Source of the DNA: Sycon ciliatum
Taxonomy: Eukaryota; Porifera; Calcarea; Leucosolenida; Sycettidae
Direction: 5' to 3'
DNA length: 64,000 nucleotides
Assembly: GCF_964019385.1 (NCBI RefSeq)
Contig: NC_088645.1
Coordinates: 12,949,769 to 13,013,768 of the forward strand
The translations under genes were made by a program, and so were the position numbers. Below are positions 1,871 to 58,300 of the stretch, piece after piece (position 1 is the stretch's first letter; every line of letters starts with the position of its first letter). Under the pieces are notes generated by a model, which did not search any database, had not been told where the DNA came from, and saw only the letters and a program-made list of their open reading frames with translations.

Positions 1871-1916
1871 GCTCAACTGATGAGGGGTGAATTCCCCGAA
1901 ACACTGTGTATTGAGC
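1871..1916 (+). ncRNA. Type I hammerhead ribozyme motif (family a)
   Basis: Stem I pairs GCTCAA (1871-1876) with TTGAGC (1911-1916). The core CTGATGA is at 1877-1883. Stem II is GGGG/CCCC (1884-1887, 1894-1897). GAAA is at 1898-1901. A short stem III at 1902-1908 is followed by TA (1909-1910), so the predicted cleavage triplet is GUA. All core positions of the known hammerhead consensus are present, including the G-C pair that opens stem II. Minimal type I hammerheads with a very short stem III are known from Penelope-like and retrozyme-like elements. Activity is inferred from the fold only. Confidence 0.72.
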
Positions 1917-2116: not shown

Positions 2117-2315
2117 TTGAGAAGAAGAAGTAGCGACGACCGGCCATTAATTTATGGAATCCAATACACCACACCACCGCATTGCGCTCTTGGCCGATCC
2201 AAACTCTGCACTCACATCACCATCACCACAGCGAGGACAATTCCGGTAGATAGATTGAAATTGACAATGACCCTCCAGACAGCTGTTTCGCTCCTCCTGA
2301 GCTCATCAGTGGAGG
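2117..2315 (-). mobile_element. Left inverted terminal repeat of a hammerhead-bearing element
   Basis: Read on the minus strand, this begins with a hammerhead and continues through sequence that recurs inverted on the plus strand at 2585-2606 and 5852-5991. That second copy is split by element R (2607-5851). Inverted terminal repeats with a hammerhead are typical of Penelope-like elements, but no RT or GIY-YIG coding lies between these arms. Confidence 0.6.
2272..2315 (-). ncRNA. Type I hammerhead ribozyme motif (family b)
   Basis: On the minus strand, stem I is CCTCCA (2315-2310) with TGGAGG (2277-2272), six perfect pairs. CTGATGA is at 2309-2303. Stem II is GCTC/GAGC and is followed by GAAA. 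The short stem III CAGCTG is followed by TC, giving a GUC cleavage site. Every core nucleotide fits the consensus. Confidence 0.82.
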
Positions 2316-7839: not shown

Positions 7840-10618
<2,779 letters not shown>

Positions 10619-10630
10619 AGACACAGGCAC

Positions 10631-10737
10631 TTGCAGAATGAGCGCAATTGCGCCAATTCAGCCCTATACAAATCAGTCTATTCTTACTTTAATATATTAT
10701 TCTTCCATTCAACATCATAACAAGAGTACCTCCCAGA
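10631..10737 (+). repeat. Continuation of the hammerhead-family repeat, truncated at the ribozyme
   Basis: Inverted match to about 2310-2400. It stops at TACCTCC, the position of the 5' stem I strand of the family-b hammerhead. The ribozyme core itself is absent. Confidence 0.6.
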
Positions 10738-15141: not shown

Positions 15142-16223
15142 CGAATCTCCTGGAAAAGTCAAAGAGTGACAATTTGGCGAACGTGCCCTTAGAGTATGAG
15201 TGTGTACATAGGCAAAGCCAGGTCCTTTCTCTTTCCGTTGTAGTTTCCCACCCGCCCTCCCCTATATTCTCACTTCGGGATAGGTCCTGCAGGCTACGTT
15301 TTGTTCATTTATCTTATGGGGTTATTCTAACCGGTTTTTCCTCAGGGTTGTGCCTCCGCCCGGGTCCTGAGGTTTTTTCCGCCAGCTTCGGGGTGGTTAA
15401 TTATCCGGCGGCCCTATTCGCCACAGTGGTTCACGTTTTGCATCATGTTGGTCTGGTACATACGTGTACATGTATATGCGTGAGGTGGCATGCCCTTCTT
15501 CATGCTCATCTCTACACTACGCTAAGCTCTTCCATCTTCCACCGTGAGTGAACAAAGACCACACTACTACTGTGATCTGTATCTCTTTCTGTTGTGTGTG
15601 GGTGTGTCTGCGGTGAAGGACAAAAAAAGAAAGAAAGAAAAAACCCAAAGGACCTATAAAATATAAGAGGTAACGTATACGTCCCTTCTCTTTACCTGCT
15701 GAAACCGTTTGTAAATTTAGATCAGGATGTCTTTCATGTTAGCACGATTGCGTTCTAGTTGTAAATTTCTCTCTTTTTTTCTCGTCACGCTACCATTTTT
15801 CGCGCTGGATAGGTTATACTTTTATTATTTTGCAGCAGCAGTGTGCATAGAATCTGATATTGAGACAGAAGCGGAAAGGTTAGCAATACATTGCTGCCCT
15901 GTTTGTGAACTGTTCTATTATTACTAGTATTGATTGATGTGCTAGGAATCATTTTTACGAGATAGCCTCGAAGACGTTCAAGGAACATACATTTTAATGA
16001 CAAGTATTTTTTGCTCATGGTCTTTGTACTGAATGTGCAACTTAGAATAAAAGTAAAGATAATAAATAATTATTTCTAATGGTGAACGGTACTATTCGGC
16101 CAATAAAATGTAAAGAACTCTTCCTCTCCTCTCCTCCATGCGCTCTCACCGCCGACTCACTGCTACCCTCGGTAGCCAATACACACACCAACCAAGGAAG
16201 GGTTGCAGGTAGATACTGAAATT

Positions 16224-16267
16224 CCTCCTGACAGCTGTTTCGCCTTCATAAGGCTCATCAGAGAAGG
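16224..16267 (-). ncRNA. Hammerhead ribozyme motif, left arm (family c)
   Basis: On the minus strand, stem I is CCTTCT/AGGAGG (six pairs, one G-U). The core is CTGATGA, stem II is GCCTT-ATG-AAGGC, then GAAA, then CAGCTG as a minimal stem III and TC as cleavage site. Complete consensus. Confidence 0.85.
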
Positions 16268-16685
16268 TGATATTGAATAGGATGATATCCAGTGGAGATG
16301 GTCAGATTTATACTACAAAACATGGGCGCAAAATTACGGGCAAAGTGTGAGAATGAGAAGTTACAATTCTCCAGCAACACAGTGCCAGGGGTTCCAAGAA
16401 AATGGCAGTTGAGTAATCCAATCACAAGCTGCTAACCTCTCCAGCAACACAGTGACAGGGGTTCCAAGAAAATGGCAGGTGAGAAATCCAATTACAAGCT
16501 GCTAACATTAATTTTCTAACGGCTAGGCTAGGTGATAGTTAAAGAATTTTGGCGAGCCACCAAACAAAGTGAAAGAAAGTAGAGTACTAAGCGTGCAGTG
16601 CAGCAAAAGTTACAAAGAGTGCACACACGCATGAATGGACTGTAATTACATGTAGATCTACTTTTCACTTGGGCAGTTCTCCAGC

Positions 16686-17039
16686 CAACCGCGCAGGCAT
16701 GCAAAGACGCACCACGTCGACTGTCCCCGCAGAGTCCCCCTCCGGCGTTCTCCCGAGCAACAGATCTCCGCTGGCCGTCACACCTTGCTGCGCACCGCAC
16801 GTGGCCGGACCGACCGCTACCTCGAGCTGTCCCCATTTGCGCCTCAGTTGCTCGCTGCCGTTGAACGTCCGGACAACCCGGCCGAGCGTGGCGAAAGCAG
16901 AAATGAGAGTCCTAGGAGGAATTCGCTCGTCTGCCCCCACAGCTGAGTTGTCGACGAAGACCATGCTTCCACGATAATGACACCGCTCCCTTCCTTCCAT
17001 TATCGACGCACTCACTGAAGTACCGCTACACTGGCACAC
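16686..17039 (-). other. GC-rich unrecognised ORF in the core of the inverted repeat
   Basis: An open frame of about 124 residues (to 16665) covers most of the spacer. It is clearly more GC-rich than the surrounding DNA. Phrases such as MVFVDNSAVGADERIPP look protein-like, but I cannot assign a family. It could be a captured exon or cargo; no splice sites were convincing. Confidence 0.3.
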
Positions 17040-17532
17040 AGTAGTAATTATTTCAAATGGTGGACGGTACTATTCGGCCAATAAAATGGAGAAATGTCCA
17101 AGAACTGGAGAAGAACGGGAGAACTGCCCAAGTGAAAAGTAGATCTACATGTCATTACAGTCCATTCATGCGTGTGTGCACTCTTTGTAACTTTTGCTGC
17201 ACTGCACGCTTAGTACATGTACTCTACTTTCTTTCACTTTGTTTGGTGGCTCGCCAAAATTCTTAAACTATCACCCAGTCGTTAGAAAATTAATGTTAGC
17301 AGCTTGGGATTGGATTTCTCACCTGCCATTTTCTTGGAACCCCTGGCACTGTGTTGCTGGAGAGGTTAGCAGCTTGTGATTGGATTACTCACCTGCCACT
17401 TTCTTGGAACCCCTGGCACTGTGTTGCTGGAGAATTGTAACTTCTCATTCTCACACTTTGCACGTAATCTTGCGCCATGTTTTGTAGTATAAGTCTGACC
17501 ATCTCCACCGGATATCATCCTATTCAATATCA

Positions 17533-17576
17533 CCTTCTCTGATGAGCCTTATGAAGGCGAAACAGCTGTCAGGAGG
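17533..17576 (+). ncRNA. Hammerhead ribozyme motif, right arm (family c)
   Basis: Same fold as the left-arm copy: CCTTCT at 17533-17538, CTGATGA at 17539-17545, stem II at 17546-17558, GAAA at 17559-17562, CAGCTG at 17563-17568, TC at 17569-17570, AGGAGG at 17571-17576. Confidence 0.85.
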
Positions 17577-17689
17577 AATTTCAGTATCTACCTGCAACCC
17601 TTCCTTGGTTGATGTGTGTAATGGCTACCGAGGGTAGCAGTGAGTCGGCTGTGAGAGCGCATGGAGGAGAGGAGAGGAAGAGTTCTTGA

Positions 17690-18520
17690 TATAAATAATA
17701 AGAGAGTGAAACTCGACTCCGCAGCTGCCTGATAGTGACACATGTCATGGCTGAAACCTAATGACGTAACTGGTACAATAGGAGTCAACAGCTATTACAT
17801 GAGCAATTGAATCTTCTAAGCACTTCTGAATAAGAATAGAATGAGGAGACGAAAGAATATGGAAAGCAGGAAATTCATGGTATTGCTAAAAGCATTGCAT
17901 TGAATGATAATTTTTTACCAGAGTCCCAAGCACAATAGGGATTGAAATCAAACAGTCCAGGAAGTGAGCTACCAGAAAATTAAATAATGCCAAGCCGACC
18001 AGCACTCACACCTGAGACATTACATATGATGAGCAAAGGTCGGACCATCTGAGACATGGGAATAGGCAGAACCTAGAATTCGCCGACAAATCCGTCACTG
18101 AACAGACAGTTCACAACACACGGTGTGGTCACTTGGCCCCCTTTAGGCATGCCAATAAAAAAATAAAAAATAAAAAAGTAAATTATCGGGTCCGTTCCCG
18201 AAGGGAACTCACGACGGCCTCTAACACCCGATAAACCCTATGCCAATAGGGCAACTATAAATGTACAGTGACAACAAAACTCTGTGAACGACCTACCAGG
18301 ATGAGGTTGGTGACGTGGTAAGGCCACAATGACACTGAGGAATACTCAGCCGCAAAACAATGTACTGGATGACTGGTTCTGTATCACTATCACCTTGTCC
18401 GTGCTATACACATTCCCACGTGTGCACTCTCTCTTTCTCTCTCACACACACACACCCAGACATGTGCCCACATGTGCGCACACATACACACACAAGCATG
18501 ACAGCATCCGCACAATTAAA
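17690..18520. other. No gene; one stem-loop
   Basis: At about 18184-18236 a structure pairs TATCGGGT with ACCCGATA and contains the inner hairpin GTTCCCGAAGGGAAC. CA-rich DNA lies at about 18445-18500. Nothing else is supported. Confidence 0.45.
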
Positions 18521-27897: not shown

Positions 27898-28490
27898 AAA
27901 TGTACTCAGTACTACTACTACTAGTAGCTACTAGCATTTCTTTATTAAGACGGTCGAGAACGGCCGAGGAAGGCTGAGGACCAGCCTGCCGACCAGCCGG
28001 CAGGACCAGCCTGCCGGGTACACTATCTGCTGACTTGGAGGCAGCAGATGCCGGAAAGCTGAGTAGTCTGGTGGACTTGCACAGAATCAGGAAGATTGCA
28101 GCGGATAGGGCCGAGTGGCGAGCTCTGTGTCAACGGGTGACAGAAAAGGATCTGTAAGGGATGGATGACACTACAATATCTGACTTCTTCTCAACGACGT
28201 ACAAGTACATGTAACCTTGTATGTTTGGATGGTGCCTTTGTTGCTGATCCACCACACCATCACTCAATGCTCTCTACTGCATTGTTCACCCACCACTGAA
28301 TTTATACTTCTGCGGCTCCTTCCCCCCCCCCTTTTCTTCTGATTCGTGCTGTTTTGGTTCTGATACAGTGATCGTTTGATTTTTTCCCACAGCGTATCAT
28401 TTGTTATCCTCCTGCCTTCGTTGTCCAGCACAAGCGAAGAAGTGGACCTATCGGTCGACTTCAACGCGAAAATGCACATAATAATAATAT
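27898..28490. other. No recognised gene
   Basis: Contains repeated GACCAGCCTGCCG words at about 27975-28018 and a C-run at about 28322. No coding feature supported. Confidence 0.4.
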
Positions 28491-28515
28491 TAAAACAATA
28501 GGAGGACAGAGAAAG

Positions 28516-28560
28516 TGTTTTTACTCAGAGTTTCACGCACTAAGCGATCATCAGAAAACA
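28516..28560 (-). ncRNA. Hammerhead-like motif, left arm (family d)
   Basis: Minus strand: stem I TGTTTT/AAAACA, core CTGATGA, stem II CGC/GCG, GAAA, stem III CTC-T-GAG, then TA. The conserved G-C pair that opens stem II is replaced by U-U. The motif is therefore a degenerate or variant hammerhead. Confidence 0.5.
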
Positions 28561-28798
28561 GTAATGAGAAATCTGGATCAGTATTGGTTTATATACTCAC
28601 AAAGCAAAGTGTAAATAGCTGCAGCATGGCGCAAATCTAAAAGTTGTGAATGGCGGCAGTGCAAAGCGTGAATGACAGCAGTGGTGAATGGTGACAACCA
28701 CTGGAGCTGGTTGTCTCTTACTTAATTAGGTGATGGCTGTAGATGGTTTGAAGTTCCGAAGGTAGTACCTATTCTCATGGCGACACTTCGACTTCTTC

Positions 28799-29640
28799 TT
28801 TGTCTCGTCCGTTTTACGCTCGACAGCTGCGACTCCGATCTACAGTGACGCGCTGAGGAAGAGTGGACACCGGGAGAACGTACAGTATTTTGACGAGCGT
28901 AAAACGGACGAGACAAAGAAGAAGAAGAAAAGGAATCGCCCTCGGAACATCATATGGTTCAACCCACCATTTAGCAAGAACGTCGCCACCGACGTTGGAC
29001 ATCGCTTCCTCCAGCTAGTGGCCAAACACTTCCCCAAAGGCTCAAGCCTCAACAAAATCTTCAACCGGAACTCTGTAAAGGTTAGCTACAGTTGCATGCA
29101 GAATATGGCCACTATCATCAAACAACACAATACCACGATTCTACGACCCAAGAATCAAGCTATTATAAACGGAGGTGACAACGATACCAGGACTTGTAAC
29201 TGTCGGGCGAAAGACTCATGCCCACTGGACGGAGCGTGTCTAACGGAGAGCATCGTATATAAGGCAAGAGTCACCGCAGGTATGGAGAAGAAGGAATATA
29301 CTGGATTAACAGCAACAACATTCAAACAACGCTACTATAACTACCAATCCTCATTCCACCACAGACAACACGAGACGGACACCCGCCTATCGCAGTACGT
29401 CTGGCCCAAAAAGGATGAAGGAAAGGCATGCAGCATTCAATGGGCGGTACACCGCAGAGCAGCGGCCTAAAGCAACAAAAGCAAAAGGTGCAACCTGTGC
29501 CTGGCAGAAAAATTGGCAATCGCGCAAGCACCCATGCAAGCACCTCTCTCTCAACAAAAGGAGTGAGCTTGTGTCGAAGTGTCGCCATGAGAATAGGTAC
29601 TACTTTCGGAACTTTAAACCATCTACAGCCATCACCTAAT
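28799..29640 (+). pseudogene. Penelope-like C-terminal region with GIY-YIG endonuclease, broken
   Basis: The frame reads SDALRKSGH, then PRNIIWFNPPFSKNVATDVG, KIFNRNSVKVSYSCM, TCNCRAKDSCPLDGACL, IVYKARV, EYTGLT, FKQRYYNYQSSF and LSQYVW. These are in the order seen between RT and GIY-YIG in Penelope elements, including the Cys-rich CNC...CPLDG linker. The GIY-YIG nuclease nicks target DNA for retrotransposition. The YIG triplet is YTG here. A TAA at 29468-29470 interrupts the frame before SKRCNLCLAEKLAI, and a frame change precedes the terminal KRSELVSKCRHE. The copy is therefore dead. Confidence 0.85.
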
Positions 29641-29810
29641 TAAGTAAGAGACAACCAGCTCCAGTGGTTGTCACCTTTCACCACTGCTGTCATTCACGCT
29701 TTGCACTGCCGCCATTCACAACTTTTAGATTTGCGCCATGCTGCAGCTATTTACACTTTGCTTTGTGAGTACATGTATATAAACCAATACTGATCCAGAT
29801 TTCTCATTAC

Positions 29811-29855
29811 TGTTTTCTGATGATCGCTTAGTGCGTGAAACTCTGAGTAAAAACA
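29811..29855 (+). ncRNA. Hammerhead-like motif, right arm (family d)
   Basis: Mirror of the left motif: TGTTTT 29811-29816, CTGATGA 29817-29823, stem II 29824-29836, GAAA 29837-29840, stem III 29841-29847, TA 29848-29849, AAAACA 29850-29855. It lies downstream of the GIY-YIG frame on the same strand. Confidence 0.5.
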
Positions 29856-30185
29856 CTTTCTCTGTCCTCCTATTGTTTGAACCGGCTCTACCACTCGGTA
29901 TTGAGCACTCTCTTTGAAAGCCTGGAACCTCTCTGTTTTAATAATAATTTTATTATTATTCGTTGAGGCTGAAATGCTTTATATACAGATAATTATTATG
30001 CTCTGTGATGCATCAGCTAGTTCGTGAATTTCTTCTTTTAGACATTCATCATTTTTTGTTCTCACATTGGTCGTGGACCTGACCCTGACGTTTCTTGCGG
30101 ATGCGCACAACAAAACGTTTTGTTGTGACATGGTTATCTAAAGTACATGGACTTTGTTACTGTCTCTTGATATTCAATAACTCAG

Positions 30186-35635: not shown

Positions 35636-38144
35636 ATGGCGGCAAAGGAGCCTCGTGTTTCTGGCAAACAGATGGAGCAGTGGTCAAGGTACGTTAATGC
35701 ATAAGTATTATCACTTTTTCTACAGAGAACCAAACCTCTGCCACAGTCATGTAGTTATAGGAGTCAGGCTTTGAATGCAAGGTGAAGTTAGATTGGCAAT
35801 GATCTTACCTGATTTGAATTTCCTACTTCGAAGTATTTTCTATCCATTTACTATTCATCCGATCTATTTTACAAGTAATTTTACATCCCAAATCAAATAG
35901 GCAAGTATGCACATAGCCAGCAATCGCAGGTTATCACCTAGATATAATAATAATCTGCATAACGGTAAAAGTAACTTAGTTTAGAATGGAACTTTTGCTC
36001 AGCGTCACCCTTTTAACCAGGCCGTAACGAGGTCGGCCGAAAGAATCCTAGAGAAAGAGAATCCTCCTCTCCACTGCTCAACCAGGATGCCGACATAGGT
36101 CCAAAAACAGACAACTAAAAGGTACGCAAGAAAACTTTACGGCCACGGCTGCGCAGACTTTGGCCCACTAATATTTTAACATACATTCAAAATTTACGAG
36201 GAGCACACAAAAATCTCCATTGAAACCTAGGCAATCTGCTGAGGCCCAAACTATAAAGAAGAAACACTGGTGGTAGGAATTCACATCGGTGCAGTGAACC
36301 AGTTTTAGTCTTCTATATCGAAGTTTACCGCGCCTAGTGTAATCCAGCGAAAACAACACAGCGTCAACCGAATGTTGCCTTTGTTTCATGAGCGCCAAAG
36401 ACAGAAGTAATCTGTGCCAGAAGATTGTGCTCTTATGGAGGTACCTATGTATACATACATACATACATAAATACAAACATACATACAAACATACTTGCAT
36501 ACATATATACATACAAACATACATACATACACACCTACTTGCGTACATACATCGTGATCTTGGTCCTGCTGCCAAGTCTCGCTACATACACACACACATA
36601 CAAGAAACAGACCCACATACATGTACACCCAATCTAATGTTGCAACCCATCCACCCAGTGATACATTTGCTGCTTTTCCTTCGTTATTTCTTCCATTTGT
36701 TTTCTATATGTCTGGTTCACACAGGATTCAGCGGAATATCCGATGTAGTATCATCGAAGAGGATCGATTCGGTCGCCCAGGAGCAACCCTGAGGTCGTCA
36801 ATTAACATCATTGGTGGACTTGATATTTCGTACAGCAGCAACGGCAACCAGACGGCCGTGGCTGCGCTATCGCTATATAACTACCGTACCATGCAACATA
36901 TGCATACATTTAAGATTCCCGTCAAAATAACCGTACCATACAAATCCGGCTTCTTGGCGTATCGAGAAGTCGAGCATTATGTCACGTTGCTGGAGACGCT
37001 TAAGAAGGAACACCCCCAGTGGAAGCCACAGGTGCTTTTGGTGGATGGCAATGGAATTTTGCACCACAGAGACTGTGGCTCAGCCAGCCATCTAGGAGTT
37101 GTGGCTGACGTGCCCACCATTGGTGTAGCCAAAACACTTCTTATTCCAGCGGTTCAAGCCCGAAGTGAGCGAGAATTCCGAGAAGTAAGTGAAGACTTCT
37201 CGATATTCTTGCCCTGGAACATTCGTTAGGAATACTCGCATCTACTTCTTTATCTTTGCACAATATTGGCTGTAATTCATTATTATTCCTGTCGTGCAAC
37301 TGAGCGAAATTTTCGGAGATGGAGGGGATAGCAAGTGAAAAGTACTTAGCTTAGGATATGGTCCCAGTGATAATCATCTGTCCCTGTTGAAAGTTTAACA
37401 CTTGCGTCTTTTTGACCCTTTTGGCATCCGCAGGACAATATCAAACACCTTTGCCAAAACAGAGGCACGGCTCCAGTGATTGGAAAGGGCAGGACCGGCA
37501 TCATTGGAGTAGCCAGCGTCAACAAAGGTGGATCAACACCCGTCTATATTTCAGTGGGCCACAGAGTGTCTCTGAATACTGCAATCAGAATAGTCCAGCA
37601 GTGCTATCGAGGCAATTGTAGAATTCCAGCTCCTATAGACAGTGCTGATCAAGAATCCCGGCAACAGATTGGTGCAAGAACAAGAGGCACTCGTCCGCGT
37701 GTGAATGCCAAGCCTAGAGATCGCAACAGTTACGACGGAGCAGTGCAGCAGGTCGACATGGACACGTCAGGCAGCAAGGATTCCACGACTTCCACCACAC
37801 ATGACGTTCCGCAGGATACTCAGAATACAGCTCCACTGAAGGCCCAGCCATCAGCTAACGCCCAAGGGACTCCTGGTTTCCCTGCTCGTCAACATGGCAA
37901 GGCAGCTCACACCTCCCCAGACGACGAGGGCTTCACCTCGGCTACTGGAAAACATACATTCAAGCCCAAGCCATCAGCTAACGCCCAAGGCACGCCTGGT
38001 TTCCCTGCTCGTCTACGTGGCAAAGCAGCTAACACCTCCCCAGACGACGACGGCTTCACCTCGGCTACTGGAAAACATACATTCAAGCCCAAGGCATCCC
38101 CGTCAGTGCAACACTTCACCCGATCCACAGGTAACATGGGCTAA
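35636..38144 (+). CDS. ENDOV: Endonuclease V, copy 1 (3' end damaged)
   Basis: Exons 35636-35688, 36725-37184 and 37434-38144 splice in frame with GT/AG borders (phases 2 and 0), giving about 407 residues. Endonuclease V cleaves next to inosine in DNA or RNA. Catalytic positions are present: Asp in GGLDIS, Glu in YREVE, Asp in LLVDGNG, Lys in TIGVAK and His in YISVGHR, plus the PYKSGFLA wedge. Compared with copy 2 it has HHRD for HHRG and VAKT for VAKK. The C-terminal extension, absent from bacterial enzymes, holds two 42-residue repeats (GTPGFPAR). The frame stops at TAA 38142-38144, where copy 2 reads on. About 200 bp and about 460 bp deletions remove the copy 2 donor and most of its last exon. 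The catalytic domain looks intact, so the copy may still be expressed. Confidence 0.85.
36440..36612. repeat. CATA/ACAT microsatellite in endonuclease V intron 1
   Basis: Imperfect tetranucleotide ACAT array; its counterpart in copy 2 (about 56180-56320) differs in length. Confidence 0.9.
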
Positions 38145-44524: not shown

Positions 44525-47338
44525 TTAAACGGAGCCATGATGCGCTTTTAGCAGGGCACAGAACTGAAGGTGGCTGGGCTCGGAACGGAGATCAGGCGGG
44601 AGCTGGTTCCACAGGACTGCGCCGATGAACTGCATGGTCGCTCGGCCCGCAGGACCGGGCCAAAATGGTACTCGAACGAGGTGATGTGCTGCTCCCCGAG
44701 TGCGGTCACCAGTAACTCTCACGAAGAAGCTGGTGAAGAGGGAGCTAGCTCGGGAGAACAGACAACGACGGACAAAGATGAGGAGCTTAATGTTAAACAT
44801 GTCCTCCAGGGTGGTGAGGCGGAGCTGTTCAAAGATTGGGCTCGTGCGCGACCACGGTGGCAGACCGAAGAAGCCGCGGATAGCGCACTTCGTTAGACGT
44901 GTGAGGGGCTCAATGTTGCCAATTTGAAGTGACGGATAAAAGGCGTTGGAAGCGTACGACAACCTACCCTGGATCATCGACCTGTAAAACAGGATCTTTG
45001 ACGCCAGGGTGAGGCTTCGGCGGCTCCGCCACAGCGCACCTACTGACTTCCGCACCTGCTGGATTGTGTGATTGACGTGAGGCTCCCAGGAGAGCTGCCC
45101 ATCTACCATTACGCCCAGGTACCGCGCTTGTTCCACAACTGCAAGGGCTGCATTCCCACAGCGAATTCGAATGTTATCTGTGTCAAGGGCTGGGCCTCTT
45201 GGGGTAATCAACAGAGCTTGCGTTTTCTTTTGGTTCAGCATTAGCCCGCGGTCCTCCAACCACTGCGACAGGCCAGTGATGGCTGTGCTTAGAGAAGAGC
45301 ACACTTGTTCGCAACTGCCCGAGGCTTCAATTGCAATGTCGTCTGCAAATTCCTGGTTTGTGACCTGCTGGGGCAAGCAGCATCGAAGGTTACGGATGTA
45401 TAGTGTGAACAGGAGGGGGCCGAGGACGGATCCTTGCGGCACCCCTCGACTGCATGCGACGTATTCCGAGCAATTTCCGCCCACGACTACGCGTTGAAGC
45501 CGCTCACTCAGGTAACTAGTAAACCATATCTGGACAGTACCGCCGACCCCAATGTCGGATAGCTCCTGTGCCAAGATGGTGTGTTTGACACAGTCGAAAG
45601 CCTTCGACATATCCACGAATATCACACCTGTGAGTTTGCGCTCATACTTCGCTTTCAGCCAGCGATTGACAGCTAGCACAAGAGCGTCCTCCGTACTGTG
45701 GTTCTTCCTGTACGCGAACTGCGAGTCAGGGAGAATACTGTGATCGGTCAGAAAGGATGTAAGCTGAGCTTTGACGATCTTCTCGAGGAGGCGAGAAACG
45801 ACTGGTAGTAGAGAAATAGGTCGATACGCAGTAGGCTGACAAGGGTCAAGGCCGCCACCTTTGAATAGCGGCGACACATTAGCAATTTTAAACTGACGGG
45901 GAACACACCCCTGACATAACGAAGTATTGAAAATGATGCTGAGCGAGGGAGCCAGTACTGATGCCGAGTTTCTAAGGACAATACCCGGCAAGTCATCATG
46001 TCCAGTTGCTTTTGACGCGTCAACGGACTGGAGAAGGGCCGTAATGTCCTCCGTCGAAACAGGCGCAAATTCCGTGAATGCTGGTGCTTCACGTTCGGCT
46101 GGTGCGTTGGCGCACAGCGCGTCTGGTCGTCCAGGGTCATGTACAACTTCGCCAAAAGTTCGGGAGAGGATTCCAACAGGTACTTGTGGTGGGCTTGAAC
46201 TTTTCGCTCGTCCAGTCACCACGTTTATCGTATTCCAGAGCTTCCGTCCATCCTTTCCGGCCGACTGTAGGCGAGCTTGAAAATACTGATCCCTTATCCT
46301 CTGATCTAGCTTGCGCGCGGCTGCGCGGAGAGTGCGGTGTTGCTCTCGCAGGCGGACATCGTTTGGAGAGCGTGAAAGAAGTCGGTGGGCCTTGTTTCGT
46401 TGACGCACAGCAGATACAAGTTCAGGACACAACCATGGGCAAGGTCGGCGCCTCGGCTTACGAGGAGGTTGTAAGGGGGCGTGACGATCTAGAGCAGTAA
46501 AAACCTTTGCGTACCATTCGCTTATCATTGCATCAACATCATTCGACTTGCTGAAAATCTCAAGATTGCAGTCCTGCAAGTCAGCGTTAAAATGCTCCCA
46601 ATTTATCCTCCACACTCGCCTCTTTCGAGATGCGACTCGTTCGGACTGCCGGGTGGCGACGATAATGTTGGCCACAAATGCGTAGTGGTCGCTGATGTCA
46701 CACTTGATGACCGTGCATGTTCCAACTAGAGAGTTAGGGGCGAGGAGCAGATCTATTAGGGTGGAAGTTGATGCCGTTACTCTTGTCGGTGTCCGGATGT
46801 GGTTTTCCAGATCAAACCGCTGGAGCATGGTGTGCATCCGGCTGTGTCCCGAGCACATGTCCACATTGAAGTCACCAATGGCGACCACGCGGTTGTTTCG
46901 TCGCAAGGTTAGATTGTTCAGACTGATTTCTAGGTCTTGCCATACTGCAGCAGTAGTGGAAGGCGGAAGGTAGAACGTAGCGAGGGTGATGGGTTCACCG
47001 GATTCTGTCTTCAAGGTGAGTATCAGATTTTCGATTGTGTCACTCTCGAGTTCAGCGTGTCTGGAAACAGCCAGGGTATCTCGACTGTATACAGCTATAC
47101 CGCCACCAGGTCTGTGCCCGCGATCGCGCCTAAAGAGTCTATAATGAGGTATATGAATGGATGAGTCAGAAATCGAACAATCAAGCCAAGTTTCAGCAAT
47201 GCCGAAGATATCTACATTGTGGTAGTTTATGAAGTTTTGGATTTCGCCTAACTTCTTTCTAAGGCTGCATACATTCAGAAAAGCAAGTTTACAAGACTTC
47301 TGTCGACCGACAGTAGCTCTATGTAATTGTGGATTCAT
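44525..47338 (-). CDS. LINE ORF2: endonuclease/reverse transcriptase
   Basis: The 937-residue frame is uninterrupted. N-terminal apurinic-type endonuclease (about residues 15-235): LAFLNVCSLRKK, IFGIAETWLD, GGGIAVYSRD, VAIGDFNVDM and CDISDHYAFV. RT (about 470-750): YRPISLLPVVSRLLEKIV, GVIFVDMSKAFDCV, RGVPQGSVLGPLL, FADDIAIEAS, LNQKKTQALLI and YLGVMVDGQLSW. The C-terminus carries the usual LTTLEDMFNIK and LWNQLPPDLR stretches. The enzyme nicks target DNA and copies element RNA into it. All visible catalytic residues (Glu, Asp and His of the nuclease; Asp of FVD and ADD) are kept, so it could be active. The clade is CR1/L2-like by domain order; I cannot place it more finely. Confidence 0.92.
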   Translation of the reverse strand: MNPQLHRATVGRQKSCKLAFLNVCSLRKKLGEIQNFINYHNVDIFGIAETWLDCSISDSSIHIPHYRLFRRDRGHRPGGGIAVYSRDTLAVSRHAELESDTIENLILTLKTESGEPITLATFYLPPSTTAAVWQDLEISLNNLTLRRNNRVVAIGDFNVDMCSGHSRMHTMLQRFDLENHIRTPTRVTASTSTLIDLLLAPNSLVGTCTVIKCDISDHYAFVANIIVATRQSERVASRKRRVWRINWEHFNADLQDCNLEIFSKSNDVDAMISEWYAKVFTALDRHAPLQPPRKPRRRPCPWLCPELVSAVRQRNKAHRLLSRSPNDVRLREQHRTLRAAARKLDQRIRDQYFQARLQSAGKDGRKLWNTINVVTGRAKSSSPPQVPVGILSRTFGEVVHDPGRPDALCANAPAEREAPAFTEFAPVSTEDITALLQSVDASKATGHDDLPGIVLRNSASVLAPSLSIIFNTSLCQGCVPRQFKIANVSPLFKGGGLDPCQPTAYRPISLLPVVSRLLEKIVKAQLTSFLTDHSILPDSQFAYRKNHSTEDALVLAVNRWLKAKYERKLTGVIFVDMSKAFDCVKHTILAQELSDIGVGGTVQIWFTSYLSERLQRVVVGGNCSEYVACSRGVPQGSVLGPLLFTLYIRNLRCCLPQQVTNQEFADDIAIEASGSCEQVCSSLSTAITGLSQWLEDRGLMLNQKKTQALLITPRGPALDTDNIRIRCGNAALAVVEQARYLGVMVDGQLSWEPHVNHTIQQVRKSVGALWRSRRSLTLASKILFYRSMIQGRLSYASNAFYPSLQIGNIEPLTRLTKCAIRGFFGLPPWSRTSPIFEQLRLTTLEDMFNIKLLIFVRRCLFSRASSLFTSFFVRVTGDRTRGAAHHLVRVPFWPGPAGRATMQFIGAVLWNQLPPDLRSEPSHLQFCALLKAHHGSV

Positions 47339-55367: not shown

Positions 55368-58300
55368 ATGGCGGGAAAGGAGCCTCGTGTTTCTGGCAAA
55401 CAGATGGAGCAGTGGTCAAGGTACGTTTATGCATAAGTATGATCACTTGTTCTACAGAAAACCAAATCTCTGCTACAGTCATGTAGTTATAGGAGTCAGG
55501 CTTTGTATGAAAGGAAGCTTGTAAGGTGAAATTAGATTGGCAATGATCTTACCTGATTTGAATTTCCTAATTTCCTATTTTCTATCCATTTACTATTCAT
55601 CCAATCTATTTTACAAGTAATTTTACATCCCAAATCAAATAGGCAAGTATGCACATAGCCAGCAATCGCAGGTTATCACCTAGACATAATAATAATCTGC
55701 ATAACGGTAAATGTAACTTAGTTTAGAATGGAACTTTTGCTCAGCGTCACCCTTTTAACCAGGCCGTAACGGGGTCGGCCAAAGGAATCCTAGAGAAAGA
55801 GAATCCTCCTCTCCACTGCTCAACCAGGATGCCGACATAGGTCCGAAAATAGACAACTAAAGGGTACGCAAGAAAACTTTACGGCCAAGGCTGCGCAGAC
55901 TTCGGCCTACTAGTATAAATACATTCAAAATTTACGAGGAGCACACAAAAAACCTCCATTGAAACCTAGGCAACCTGCGCAACTGGAAAGAAGAAACACT
56001 GGTGGTAGGAATTCACACCGGCGCAGTGAACCAGTTCCAGTCTTCTATATCGAAGTTTACCACGCCTAGTGTAATCCAGCGAAAACAACACAGCCTCAAC
56101 CGAATGTTGCCTTTGTTTCATGAGCGCCAAAGACAGAAGTAATCTGTGCCAGAAGATTGTGCTCTTATGGAGGTACCTAAGTATACATACATACATACAT
56201 ACATAAATACAAACATACATACAAACATACTTTAGTACATACATACATACTTGCATACATACATCGTGATCTTGATCCTGCTGCCAAGTCTCGCTACATA
56301 CACACATACATACAAGAAACAGACCTAGATACACCCACTCTTATGTTGTAACCCATCCACCCAGTGATACATTTGCTGTTTTTTCTTCGTTATTTCTTCC
56401 ATTGGGTTTCTATGTCTGGTTCACACAGGATTCAGCGGAATATCCGATGTAGTATCATCGAAGAGGATCGATTCGGTCGCCCAGGAGCAACCCTGAGGTC
56501 GTCAATTAACATCATTGGTGGACTTGATATTTCGTTCAGCAGCAACGACAACCAGACGGCCGTGGCTGCGCTATCGCTATATAACTACGGTACCATGCAA
56601 CACATGCATACATTTAAGATTCCCGTCAAAATAACCGTACCATACAAATCCGGCTTTTTGGCGTATCGAGAAGTCGAGCATTATGTCACGTTGCTGGAGA
56701 CACTTAAGAAGGAACACCCCCAGTGGAAGCCACAGGTGCTTTTGGTGGATGGCAATGGAATTTTGCACCACAGAGGCTGTGGCTCAGCCAGCCATCTAGG
56801 AGTTGTGGCTGACGTGCCCACCATTGGTGTAGCCAAAAAACTTCTTATTCCAGCGGTTCAAGCCCGAAGTGAGCGACAATTCCGAGAAGTAAGTGAAGAC
56901 TTCTCTATGTTCTTGCCCTGGAACATTCGTTAGGAATACTCGCATCTACTTCTTTATCTTTGCCGTGATGATGCCCATTTCGCACAGTATTGGCTGTAAT
57001 TCATTATTATTCCTGTCGTGCAACTGAGCGAAATTTTCGTAGATGGAGGGGATAGCAAGTGAAAAGTACTTAGCTTAGGATTTGGTCCCAGTGATAATCA
57101 TCTGTCCCTGTTGAAAGTTTAACACTTGCGTCTTTTTGACCCTTTTGGCATCCGCAGGACAATATCAAACACCTTTGCCAAAACAGAGGCACGGCTCCAG
57201 TGATTGGAAAGGGCAAGACCGGCATCATTGGAGTAGCCAGCGTCAACAAAGGTGGATCAACACCCGTCTATATTTCAGTGGGCCACAGAGTGTCTCTGAA
57301 TACTGCAGTTAGAATAGTCCAGCAGTGCTATCGAGGCAATTGTAGAATTCCAGCTCCTATAGACAGTGCTGATCAAGAATCCCGGCAACAGATTGGTGCA
57401 AGAACGAGAGATACTCGCCCGCGTGTGAATGCCAAGCCTAGAGATCGCAACACTTACCACGGACCAGTGCAGCAGGTCGACATGGACACGTCTGGCGGCA
57501 AGGATTCCACGACTTCCACCACACATGACGTTCAGCAGGAGACTCCGAATACAGCTCCACTGAAGGCACAGCCATCAGATAACGCCCAAGGGACTCCTGG
57601 TTTCCCTGCTCGTCTACGTGGCAAAGCAGCTCACACCTCCCCAGACGACGAGGGCTTCACCTCGGCTACTGGAAAACATACATTGAAGCCCAAGCCATCA
57701 GCTAACGCCCAAGGGACTCCTGGTTTCCCTGCTCGTCTACGTGGCAAAGCAGCTCACACCTCCTCAGACGACGAGGGCTTCACCTCGGCTACTGGAAAAC
57801 ATACATTCAAGCCCAAGGCATCCCCGTCAGTGCAACACATCACCCGATCCACAGGTAACATGGGCTACGGAAGCATCAGCCACCAAGAGGGAGAGGCATT
57901 TGGAACGCATTGCAGCTACCCGCAGAGGAAGCGCTAGTGCAATCAAGGTAATTAATGGCTTAAGTTGTGTTTGCACTCTCATTACTCACCATTATGTATC
58001 ATACAAGTTGCCAACTATACCAACAGGACACCCGTGGAAACCCTAATGAAATCCCATTTCATCCTAGCTCACAGCCCTCTAATTACTCCCTTTTATCGAA
58101 CATCCACATAAATCCTAGCATCGCATCAGAGTCTGTCACACGATAAACTGCTGGAACTGTAAAGATAGGCTTCATTAGTTCATGCAGCCCTCGACATAAG
58201 ATACACCACATCACTACCCCTCTCGAGGAATGCATTGGGAAATCCTGCGCGGTTACGTAGATACATTCTACGTAGATCGAAGTCAGAGCACGTCGAGAAA

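What the first reader, a model, noticed from the sequence alone, without database searches (positions are those of the whole stretch)
16113..17687. Inverted repeat carrying a complete hammerhead ribozyme in each arm
Both 570-bp arms contain a perfect minimal type I hammerhead (CTGATGA, GC-rich stem II, GAAA, CAGCTG, GUC site). The pair faces outward from a GC-rich 430-bp core. RNA from either strand would end with one active-sense ribozyme and carry the other as antisense, which could help to process and circularise element RNA. The core ORF is unexplained and might be cargo.
Basis: partly seen in the sequence, partly recalled or inferred. Interest (0 to 1): 0.82.

Follow-up and report, generated by a model that had tools for sequence, protein, structure and literature searches.

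The report
Ribozyme-bearing Penelope-type retroelement insertion
The inverted repeat is one insertion of a protein-less retroelement that carries a hammerhead ribozyme and has the end structure typical of Penelope-like retrotransposons; the two mirror-image halves look like two separate DNA copies made into the same break, not a device that uses two ribozymes together.

Summary
The arrangement is not a designed two-ribozyme unit. The arm belongs to a genome-wide retroelement family; the hammerhead pattern occurs 1085 times in the 538-Mb genome, against 0 for the reversed control. Stems I and II co-vary across subfamilies. Insertions show the signature of Penelope-like elements (PLEs): outward arms cut short at different points, target duplications, AT-rich targets, and a ~42-nt "tail". 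Among evaluable two-armed insertions of this subfamily, 40 of 42 carry the tail on exactly one end. Two reverse-transcription start sites measured in a lizard PLE (PMC11167929) would explain this: one cDNA from each site, one per cut strand. Fold-back self-priming, an explanation in print, fits poorly, because arms of one insertion end at different places. The "core ORF" shows no coding constraint. The element has no protein of its own; GIY-YIG elements of this genome are the likely helpers, but no sequence link was found. Interest lies in the near-strict tail rule and in retrozyme-type hammerheads within PLE-type insertions. Cleavage is untested.

The parts
16062..16070 (.). left copy of target-site duplication ATAAATAAT
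   Evidence: exact match to 17691-17699; overlaps the last letters of the tail by microhomology
16067..16112 (-). tail of the left arm (unit positions 933-978), present on this outer end only
   Evidence: same ~42-nt extension on one end of nearly all two-armed copies read
16113..16682 (-). left arm (unit positions 363-932)
   Evidence: 582 first-look candidates in the genome, 40 scored
16224..16267 (-). hammerhead ribozyme motif with stem I, left arm (core pattern 16230-16261)
   Evidence: covariation across subfamilies
16683..17044 (-). GC-rich core = unit positions 1-362, 5' half of the same unit; non-coding
   Evidence: 52 first-look candidates in the genome, 40 scored; no coding constraint
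17045..17088 (-). second tail copy, upstream partial unit (tandem junction U978|U1)
   Evidence: (D4, 978-bp spacing)
17089..17117 (.). 29-nt filler at the junction of the two cDNAs
   Evidence: no match to the unit at the threshold used
17118..17687 (+). right arm (unit positions 363-932), ends without tail
17533..17576 (+). hammerhead ribozyme motif with stem I, right arm (core pattern 17539-17570)
17691..17699 (.). right copy of target-site duplication ATAAATAAT

Best explanation
It is one insertion of a non-autonomous retroelement with a 978-nt unit (core, arm with hammerhead, tail), moved in trans by Penelope-like (PLE) machinery. Shown by sequence: repeat family, hammerhead family, tail on one end, staggered arms, target duplications, tandem junctions. 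Inferred: a PLE protein cuts both strands of an AT-rich target and starts reverse transcription inside the RNA at two sites about 42 nt apart, one cDNA per strand; the two cDNAs grow towards each other, stop at unrelated places and are joined by their ends, which leaves an outward-facing inverted repeat with the tail on one end. The hammerhead probably trims long or tandem transcripts of the unit; it was left uncut, or was re-ligated, in most of the RNAs that were copied.
For: Tail on exactly one end: 22 of 22 evaluable two-armed insertions among 40 loci; 24 of 26 evaluable in a second sample taken by end motif only (letters of the unclear ones read in 66-69); 40 of 42 without overlap (2e-10 at p = 0.5). 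Other subfamilies: 6 of 6 evaluable, of 7 looked at. The tail is not merely rare: 47 of 100 listed ends have it, and single-armed copies are 8 with and 7 without (duplicate L082 left out). Neighbouring ends face outward in 27 of 28 pairs. Target duplications of 9-15 bp outside simple repeats in 11 insertions. Arms of one insertion stop at different unit positions: 16 of 17 measurable pairs differ by more than 30 nt. A lizard PLE protein cuts and extends both strands and starts RT at two sites whose spacing is the tail (PMC11167929). GIY-YIG loci of this genome have hammerhead-like motifs nearby (9 of 12). A second insertion in the window, 28478-29953, has the same design around a GIY-YIG-looking ORF.
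Against: No GIY-YIG element sharing the arm or tail sequence was found: BLAST of the element against 13 GIY-YIG loci gave nothing significant. Pfam called GIY-YIG but no reverse-transcriptase domain in the helper ORF tested (558 aa of L042), and called nothing above its cut-off in the ORF inside the second insertion of the window. One apparent exception has tails on both ends (L091, target duplication unclear) and one pair has none (L095/L096, no shared flank seen). For most pairs of the second sample I did not read the flanks, so that both ends belong to one insertion is assumed. L023, L024 and L061 gave no clear target duplication. Arm pairs are only moderately more alike than arms of different insertions (mean rank 0.27 over 18 pairs; L019 and L021 less alike than most), so one shared RNA template is not proven. 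In the lizard system the start site did not differ by strand, and ribozyme cleavage was not needed for insertion in vitro.
Confidence: 0.78

Rival explanations
1. The inverted repeat formed by fold-back: one cDNA turned round and copied itself (self-priming), as proposed for rotifer Penelope elements.
For: Outward-facing inverted arms are common, and this is an explanation in print for such structures (PMC3846280). One pair (L061) has nearly equal inner ends.
Against: Fold-back arms should mirror each other at the turn and end alike. Here 16 of 17 measurable pairs stop more than 30 nt apart at the inner junction (5 of the 22 two-armed insertions were not measured because an arm runs into a second lap), and the outer ends differ by the tail in 40 of 42.
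Confidence: 0.06
2. A two-ribozyme device: the inverted pair is maintained so that either-strand transcripts are processed or circularised.
For: Both motifs are intact and outward-facing.
Against: In 11 of 22 two-armed insertions one arm lacks a complete hammerhead; 71 of 100 listed motifs have no second match within 2 kb; the hammerhead columns are not clearly better kept than the rest of the arm within this subfamily (138 of 388 windows at least as conserved); the other arm is antisense and could mask the ribozyme.
Confidence: 0.04
3. A terminal-inverted-repeat DNA transposon or foldback element with ribozyme-bearing ends.
For: Long near-identical inverted arms and flanking duplications.
Against: Ends are unequal (tail on one), arm length is variable, single-armed and tandem forms exist, target duplication length varies.
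Confidence: 0.02
4. The same kind of element but moved by a LINE (twin priming), not by PLE machinery.
For: LINE-looking RT ORFs exist in the window (looks only, not searched); twin priming can also give inverted 5' parts (recalled).
Against: The ~42-nt tail on one end, two fixed start points, partial tandem units and hammerheads are PLE traits in print (PMC11167929, PMC3846280); LINE twin priming does not predict a fixed second start 42 nt away (inference).
Confidence: 0.1

Closest known systems
Penelope-like retroelements with pseudo-LTRs (Penelope/Poseidon type; PMC11167929, PMC3846280)
   Same: Outward inverted arms, 30-40-nt tail on one arm, partial tandem units, short target duplications, AT-rich targets, hammerhead motif near the RT start sites.
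   Different: No RT or GIY-YIG gene in the unit; the hammerhead has a 2-bp stem III with a tetraloop, while a review describes PLE hammerheads as minimal variants lacking helix III or the loop-loop contacts (PMC7761336, passages); no sequence similarity to the GIY-YIG loci sampled here.
Animal non-LTR retrozymes (PMC7229834)
   Same: Non-autonomous, type I hammerhead with 2-bp stem III and tetraloop, several families per genome, target duplications longer than 4 bp.
   Different: Unit is 978 nt, not about 150-450; copies read here are single or inverted with only partial tandems; ends carry the PLE tail signature; circular RNA not tested.
pLTR-flanked host sequences moved in trans by rotifer Penelope (PMC3846280, passages and Discussion)
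   Same: Terminal sequences alone appear enough for movement in trans.
   Different: There a few captured sequences, among them one gene; here high-copy families with several subfamilies.
Type I hammerhead ribozyme (Rfam clan CL00010)
   Same: Core letters, three stems, covariation.
   Different: Below Rfam cut-offs (16.1 of 52 bits).

Membership tests
Type I hammerhead ribozyme | conserved core CUGAUGA...GAAA...UH with three helices | tested here: met
   stems I and II pair 5.26 of 6 and 3.55 of 4 on average over distinct types, above every one of 2000 re-deals (related sequences, so not a strict probability)
Type I hammerhead ribozyme | matches Rfam model at gathering score | tested here: not met
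   no match; HH9 16.1 bits against 52
Type I hammerhead ribozyme | self-cleavage | not testable with these tools
   needs in vitro transcription
Type I hammerhead ribozyme | loop 1 - loop 2 contacts | not tested
   none
Penelope-like element | ORF with RT and GIY-YIG endonuclease | tested here: not met
   core ORF has no Pfam match and no coding constraint; so a dependent, not a full PLE
Penelope-like element | inverted pLTR-like arms with a tail on one | tested here: met
   40 of 42
Penelope-like element | short target duplications, AT-rich targets | tested here: met
   9-15 bp in 11 insertions (window, L002, L003, L018-L021, L027, L029, L048, L077); 9 of 22 two-armed insertions sit in (AAT)n runs; none clear in L023, L024, L061
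Penelope-like element | partial tandem units | tested here: met
   U978|U1 junction in window, L003, L017, L027, L074, L085 and, with a 2-nt gap, L088
Animal retrozyme | non-autonomous with type I hammerhead | tested here: met
Animal retrozyme | tandem repeats of about 150-450 bp | tested here: not met
   978-nt unit; same-strand neighbours in 2 of 15 pairs within 2 kb among 100 listed motifs
Animal retrozyme | circular RNA intermediate | not testable with these tools
   no RNA data; tandem junctions fit a circle or a tandem transcript
TIR DNA transposon | equal inverted ends, fixed-length target duplication | tested here: not met
   unequal ends, variable duplication

The most novel reading that the evidence does not exclude
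Retrozyme-type hammerhead elements of animals are moved by Penelope machinery, and each insertion is made by a paired complex in which one cDNA starts at the outer and the other at the inner of two RNA start sites, one per cut DNA strand, so that the tail marks one end only; [quoted passage not shown]
Probability: 0.3. Interest if true: 0.72.

Novelty: new variant of a known kind. Interest (0 to 1): 0.52.

Why it matters
The retrozyme paper and a review call PLEs only strong or likely candidates for moving animal retrozymes (PMC7229834, PMC7761336; passages). Here a retrozyme-type hammerhead sits in elements whose insertion ends show the PLE signature. The near-strict one-tail rule also turns a described but 'optional' feature of PLEs into a count that separates mechanisms: it favours two target-primed cDNAs with different start sites over fold-back self-priming, and can be tested in any genome with PLEs.

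Tried and rejected
Rejected: cargo gene in the core. In one search synonymous changes are 0.26 of changes against 0.295 expected, and 12 of the 22 aligned stretches (window itself included) carry at least one frameshifting indel; the older relatives L089 and L090 carry 10 and 12. Rejected: that the hammerhead is better kept than its surroundings within the subfamily (138 of 388 windows as good). Not found: a GIY-YIG element with the same arm or tail, or protein similarity between the hammerhead loci and the PLE-type ORFs; three hammerhead loci did match ORFs taken from GIY-YIG loci (L022 to L033, L060 and L067 to L037), but those longest ORFs do not look PLE-like to me and the matches were not followed. 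Not found: a bias for the tail arm to be longer (7 of 17). Weak lead kept apart: second-lap copies stop between the hammerhead site and the tail in 9 of 10, or 7 of 8 without L004 and L006, whose match is only 8-10 nt (Fisher 7.5e-6). This could also come from the structure of the source copy or from a promoter, and no copy stops exactly at the cleavage site. Host species not identified.

Rows dropped before counts: L001, L007, L008, L016, L026, L056/L057 (same or duplicate insertions); L017 (near-duplicate of L003, left end not seen) and L086 (left end outside the locus); L051 (both arms run on into the same sequence). Of the 22 two-armed insertions, 5 (window, L003, L027, L074, L085) are not in the 17 measured for inner ends because an arm runs into a second lap. 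Ends and inner positions were copied by hand from the outputs and by reading flanks.

Full report
What is there. Two arms, 16113-16682 (-) and 17118-17687 (+), are inverted copies (96-99% in ungapped blocks) and each holds CTGATGA-GCCTTATGAAGGC-GAAACAGCTGTC. The looser pattern is found 3 times in the window against a mean of 0.03 in shuffles. Rfam does not reach its cut-off and folding energy is unremarkable.

Is the ribozyme real? In the window's own genome (538 Mb, 313 contigs) the pattern CTGATGAN{6,24}GAAACAGCTGTC has 1085 matches, and the reversed control has 0. Reading 90 instances (27 distinct, some loci overlapping) shows several subfamilies with different but complementary stems: CCTTCT/AGGAGG, CCTTCA/TGAAGG, CCTCTA/TAGAGG, CCTCCA/TGGAGG for stem I, and GCCT/AGGC, GCTA/TAGC, GCTC/GAGC, GACC/GGTT, GGCC/GGCT for stem II. 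Mean pairing is 5.26 of 6 and 3.55 of 4, above the maximum of 2000 re-deals of the 3' sides (5.0 and 3.3). The sequences are related, so this is strong but not a strict probability. Within the window's own subfamily (53 arms) the hammerhead columns differ little from the rest of the arm, as expected for neutral dead copies. Cleavage itself is untested.

What is the element? The arm has 582 first-look candidates in the genome, of which 40 were scored; the core has 52, of which 40 were scored. Core, arm and tail form one 978-nt unit U (core 1-362, arm 363-932, tail 933-978 on the minus strand of 17044-16067). Position 978 is followed directly by position 1 in the window, L003, L017, L027, L074 and L085, and with a 2-nt gap in L088, so the copied RNA was a tandem or a circle. 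The GC-rich core is thus the 5' half of the unit. Its 111-codon ORF shows no coding constraint: synonymous changes 0.26 against 0.295 expected, frameshifting indels in 12 of 22 aligned stretches. The older relatives L089 and L090 (71% alike) break it 10 and 12 times. I therefore reject cargo.

How the ends look. In the copies the arm ends at U~927-944, or runs on through a ~42-nt tail to U~972-978. For two-armed insertions I asked which end has the tail. First sample: 40 loci chosen by similarity or from the pattern list, read: 22 two-armed and evaluable, 16 single-armed, 2 not evaluable (L017, L086). All 22 have the tail on exactly one end. Second sample, chosen only by the exact arm-end motif: 100 listed of 237 ends, tail status from the 91 tail junctions; 47 of the 100 have the tail. 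27 of 28 neighbouring pairs within 3 kb are outward-facing. By exact match 20 pairs are tail/no tail, 5 no/no and 2 tail/tail. Letters of all five no/no pairs were read: four have a tail with changed letters on one end, and one (L095/L096) has none and shares no flank that I could see. Of the two tail/tail pairs, one is an internal tandem junction of L017 and one (L091) is an apparent true exception whose target duplication is unclear. That leaves 24 of 26. I did not read the flanks of most of these pairs. Six insertions are in both samples, so the union is 40 of 42 (binomial 2e-10 at one half). Single-armed copies are 8 with and 7 without tail, one duplicate left out. In other subfamilies, with other tail sequences, 6 of the 7 two-armed loci looked at were evaluable and all 6 obey. 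Among GIY-YIG elements the second insertion of the window (28478-29953) and L043 obey; L039 has one tail arm and one arm that stops earlier.

Target duplications of 9-15 bp outside simple repeats are seen in the window, L002, L003, L018, L019, L020, L021, L027, L029, L048 and L077; L023, L024 and L061 show none clear. In the window it is ATAAATAAT at 16062-16070 and 17691-17699. Nine of the 22 two-armed insertions lie in (AAT)n runs.

How it most likely works. Frangieh et al. (PMC11167929; parts 1-3 of 4 read) showed that the Poseidon protein of the green anole cuts and extends both DNA strands, prefers ATT sites, and starts reverse transcription inside the RNA at two adjacent sites, the distance between which is the tail. 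Applied here: one cDNA starts at U~976 on one strand and the other at U~936 on the other strand. They grow towards each other, stop at unrelated positions (16 of 17 measurable pairs differ by more than 30 nt) and are joined. This gives outward arms, a tail on one end and a short target duplication. Fold-back self-priming, suggested for rotifer Penelope elements (PMC3846280, passages and Discussion), does not predict unequal inner and outer ends. What is shown: the anatomy and the counts. What is inferred: the protein, the pairing of start sites with strands, and end-joining. The lizard study saw no difference of start site between strands in vitro; my counts say only that the two ends of one insertion use different sites. 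Whether both cDNAs came from one RNA is open: paired arms are somewhat more alike than unpaired ones (mean rank 0.27 over 18 pairs), but not in L019 and L021.

Role of the hammerhead. 52 of 60 first-lap arms were copied across the cleavage site, so the template was uncut there or re-ligated. In the lizard PLE, cleavage was not needed for insertion in vitro and was protein-assisted. Second-lap copies stop between tail and cleavage site in 9 of 10, or 7 of 8 after dropping two doubtful ones. This would fit a template whose 5' end was made by the upstream hammerhead, but a promoter or the shape of the source copy would fit too. I treat it as a lead.

Who moves it? The unit has no protein. The GIY-YIG search found 13 loci; I set aside L031, which looks like bacterial UvrC (recalled name). 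Hammerhead-like motifs lie near 9 of the other 12. That these are PLEs rests on the GIY-YIG match, the end structure of some, and a recalled YIDD reverse-transcriptase motif in L032; Pfam called GIY-YIG but no RT domain in 558 aa of L042. No significant DNA or translated similarity to the unit was found, so the helper is inferred from end structure alone.

Compared with what is known. The end structure is that of PLEs; the hammerhead (2-bp stem III, tetraloop) is that described for invertebrate retrozymes (PMC7229834, abstract, one results section and passages), not the minimal form lacking helix III or loop contacts described for PLEs (PMC7761336, passages). In the passages seen, those papers name PLEs as strong or likely helpers of retrozymes without giving structural proof; I saw no such proof in seven paper searches, which cover only openly licensed papers and of which I saw listings. 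Cervera and de la Pena 2014 and Craig et al. 2021 were not held. The tail on 'one of the inverted pLTRs', called optional, is in print (PMC3846280); the near-strict count and the contrast with fold-back I did not see in what I read.

Verdict. A real hammerhead family, by copy number and covariation, in a Penelope-type, protein-less retroelement. The two-ribozyme arrangement is a by-product of insertion. New variant of a known kind.

Noticed in passing
window 28478-29953: A second insertion with inverted arms (28490-28792 / 29573-29881), hammerhead-like motifs at 28522 (-) and 29817 (+), an extension on the right end only, and a GIY-YIG-looking ORF (28766-29470; likeness recalled) that Pfam does not call.
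   Followed up: partly
window 2278-2309 (-): A copy of another hammerhead subfamily (GCTCAGGAGGAGC stem II) with its own tail-like extension.
   Followed up: partly
window 1877-1910 (+); also L012 2083 (-): A further hammerhead-like motif with different stem II and III (CTGATGAGGGGTGAATTCCCCGAAACACTGTGTA), in at least two places.
   Followed up: no
window about 8400-10650: A (CA)n array of about 2.2 kb.
   Followed up: no
window 44525-47338 (-): A 937-aa ORF that looks like a LINE reverse transcriptase (by eye; not searched).
   Followed up: no
window 36558-37229 and 56352-56933; also 40-41.4 kb and 60.5-62.9 kb: Near-copies of a stretch with an endonuclease V-like ORF (Pfam match on the first copy) and of an RT-looking stretch, about 20 kb apart: probably a segmental duplication.
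   Followed up: no
L084, outer end: After the tail a short piece like unit 920-938 follows, as if a cDNA begun at the inner start site jumped to the outer one (read by eye).
   Followed up: no
L031 (contig C291): Long ORF with a full-length GIY-YIG match, UvrC-like by eye; the contig may be bacterial.
   Followed up: no
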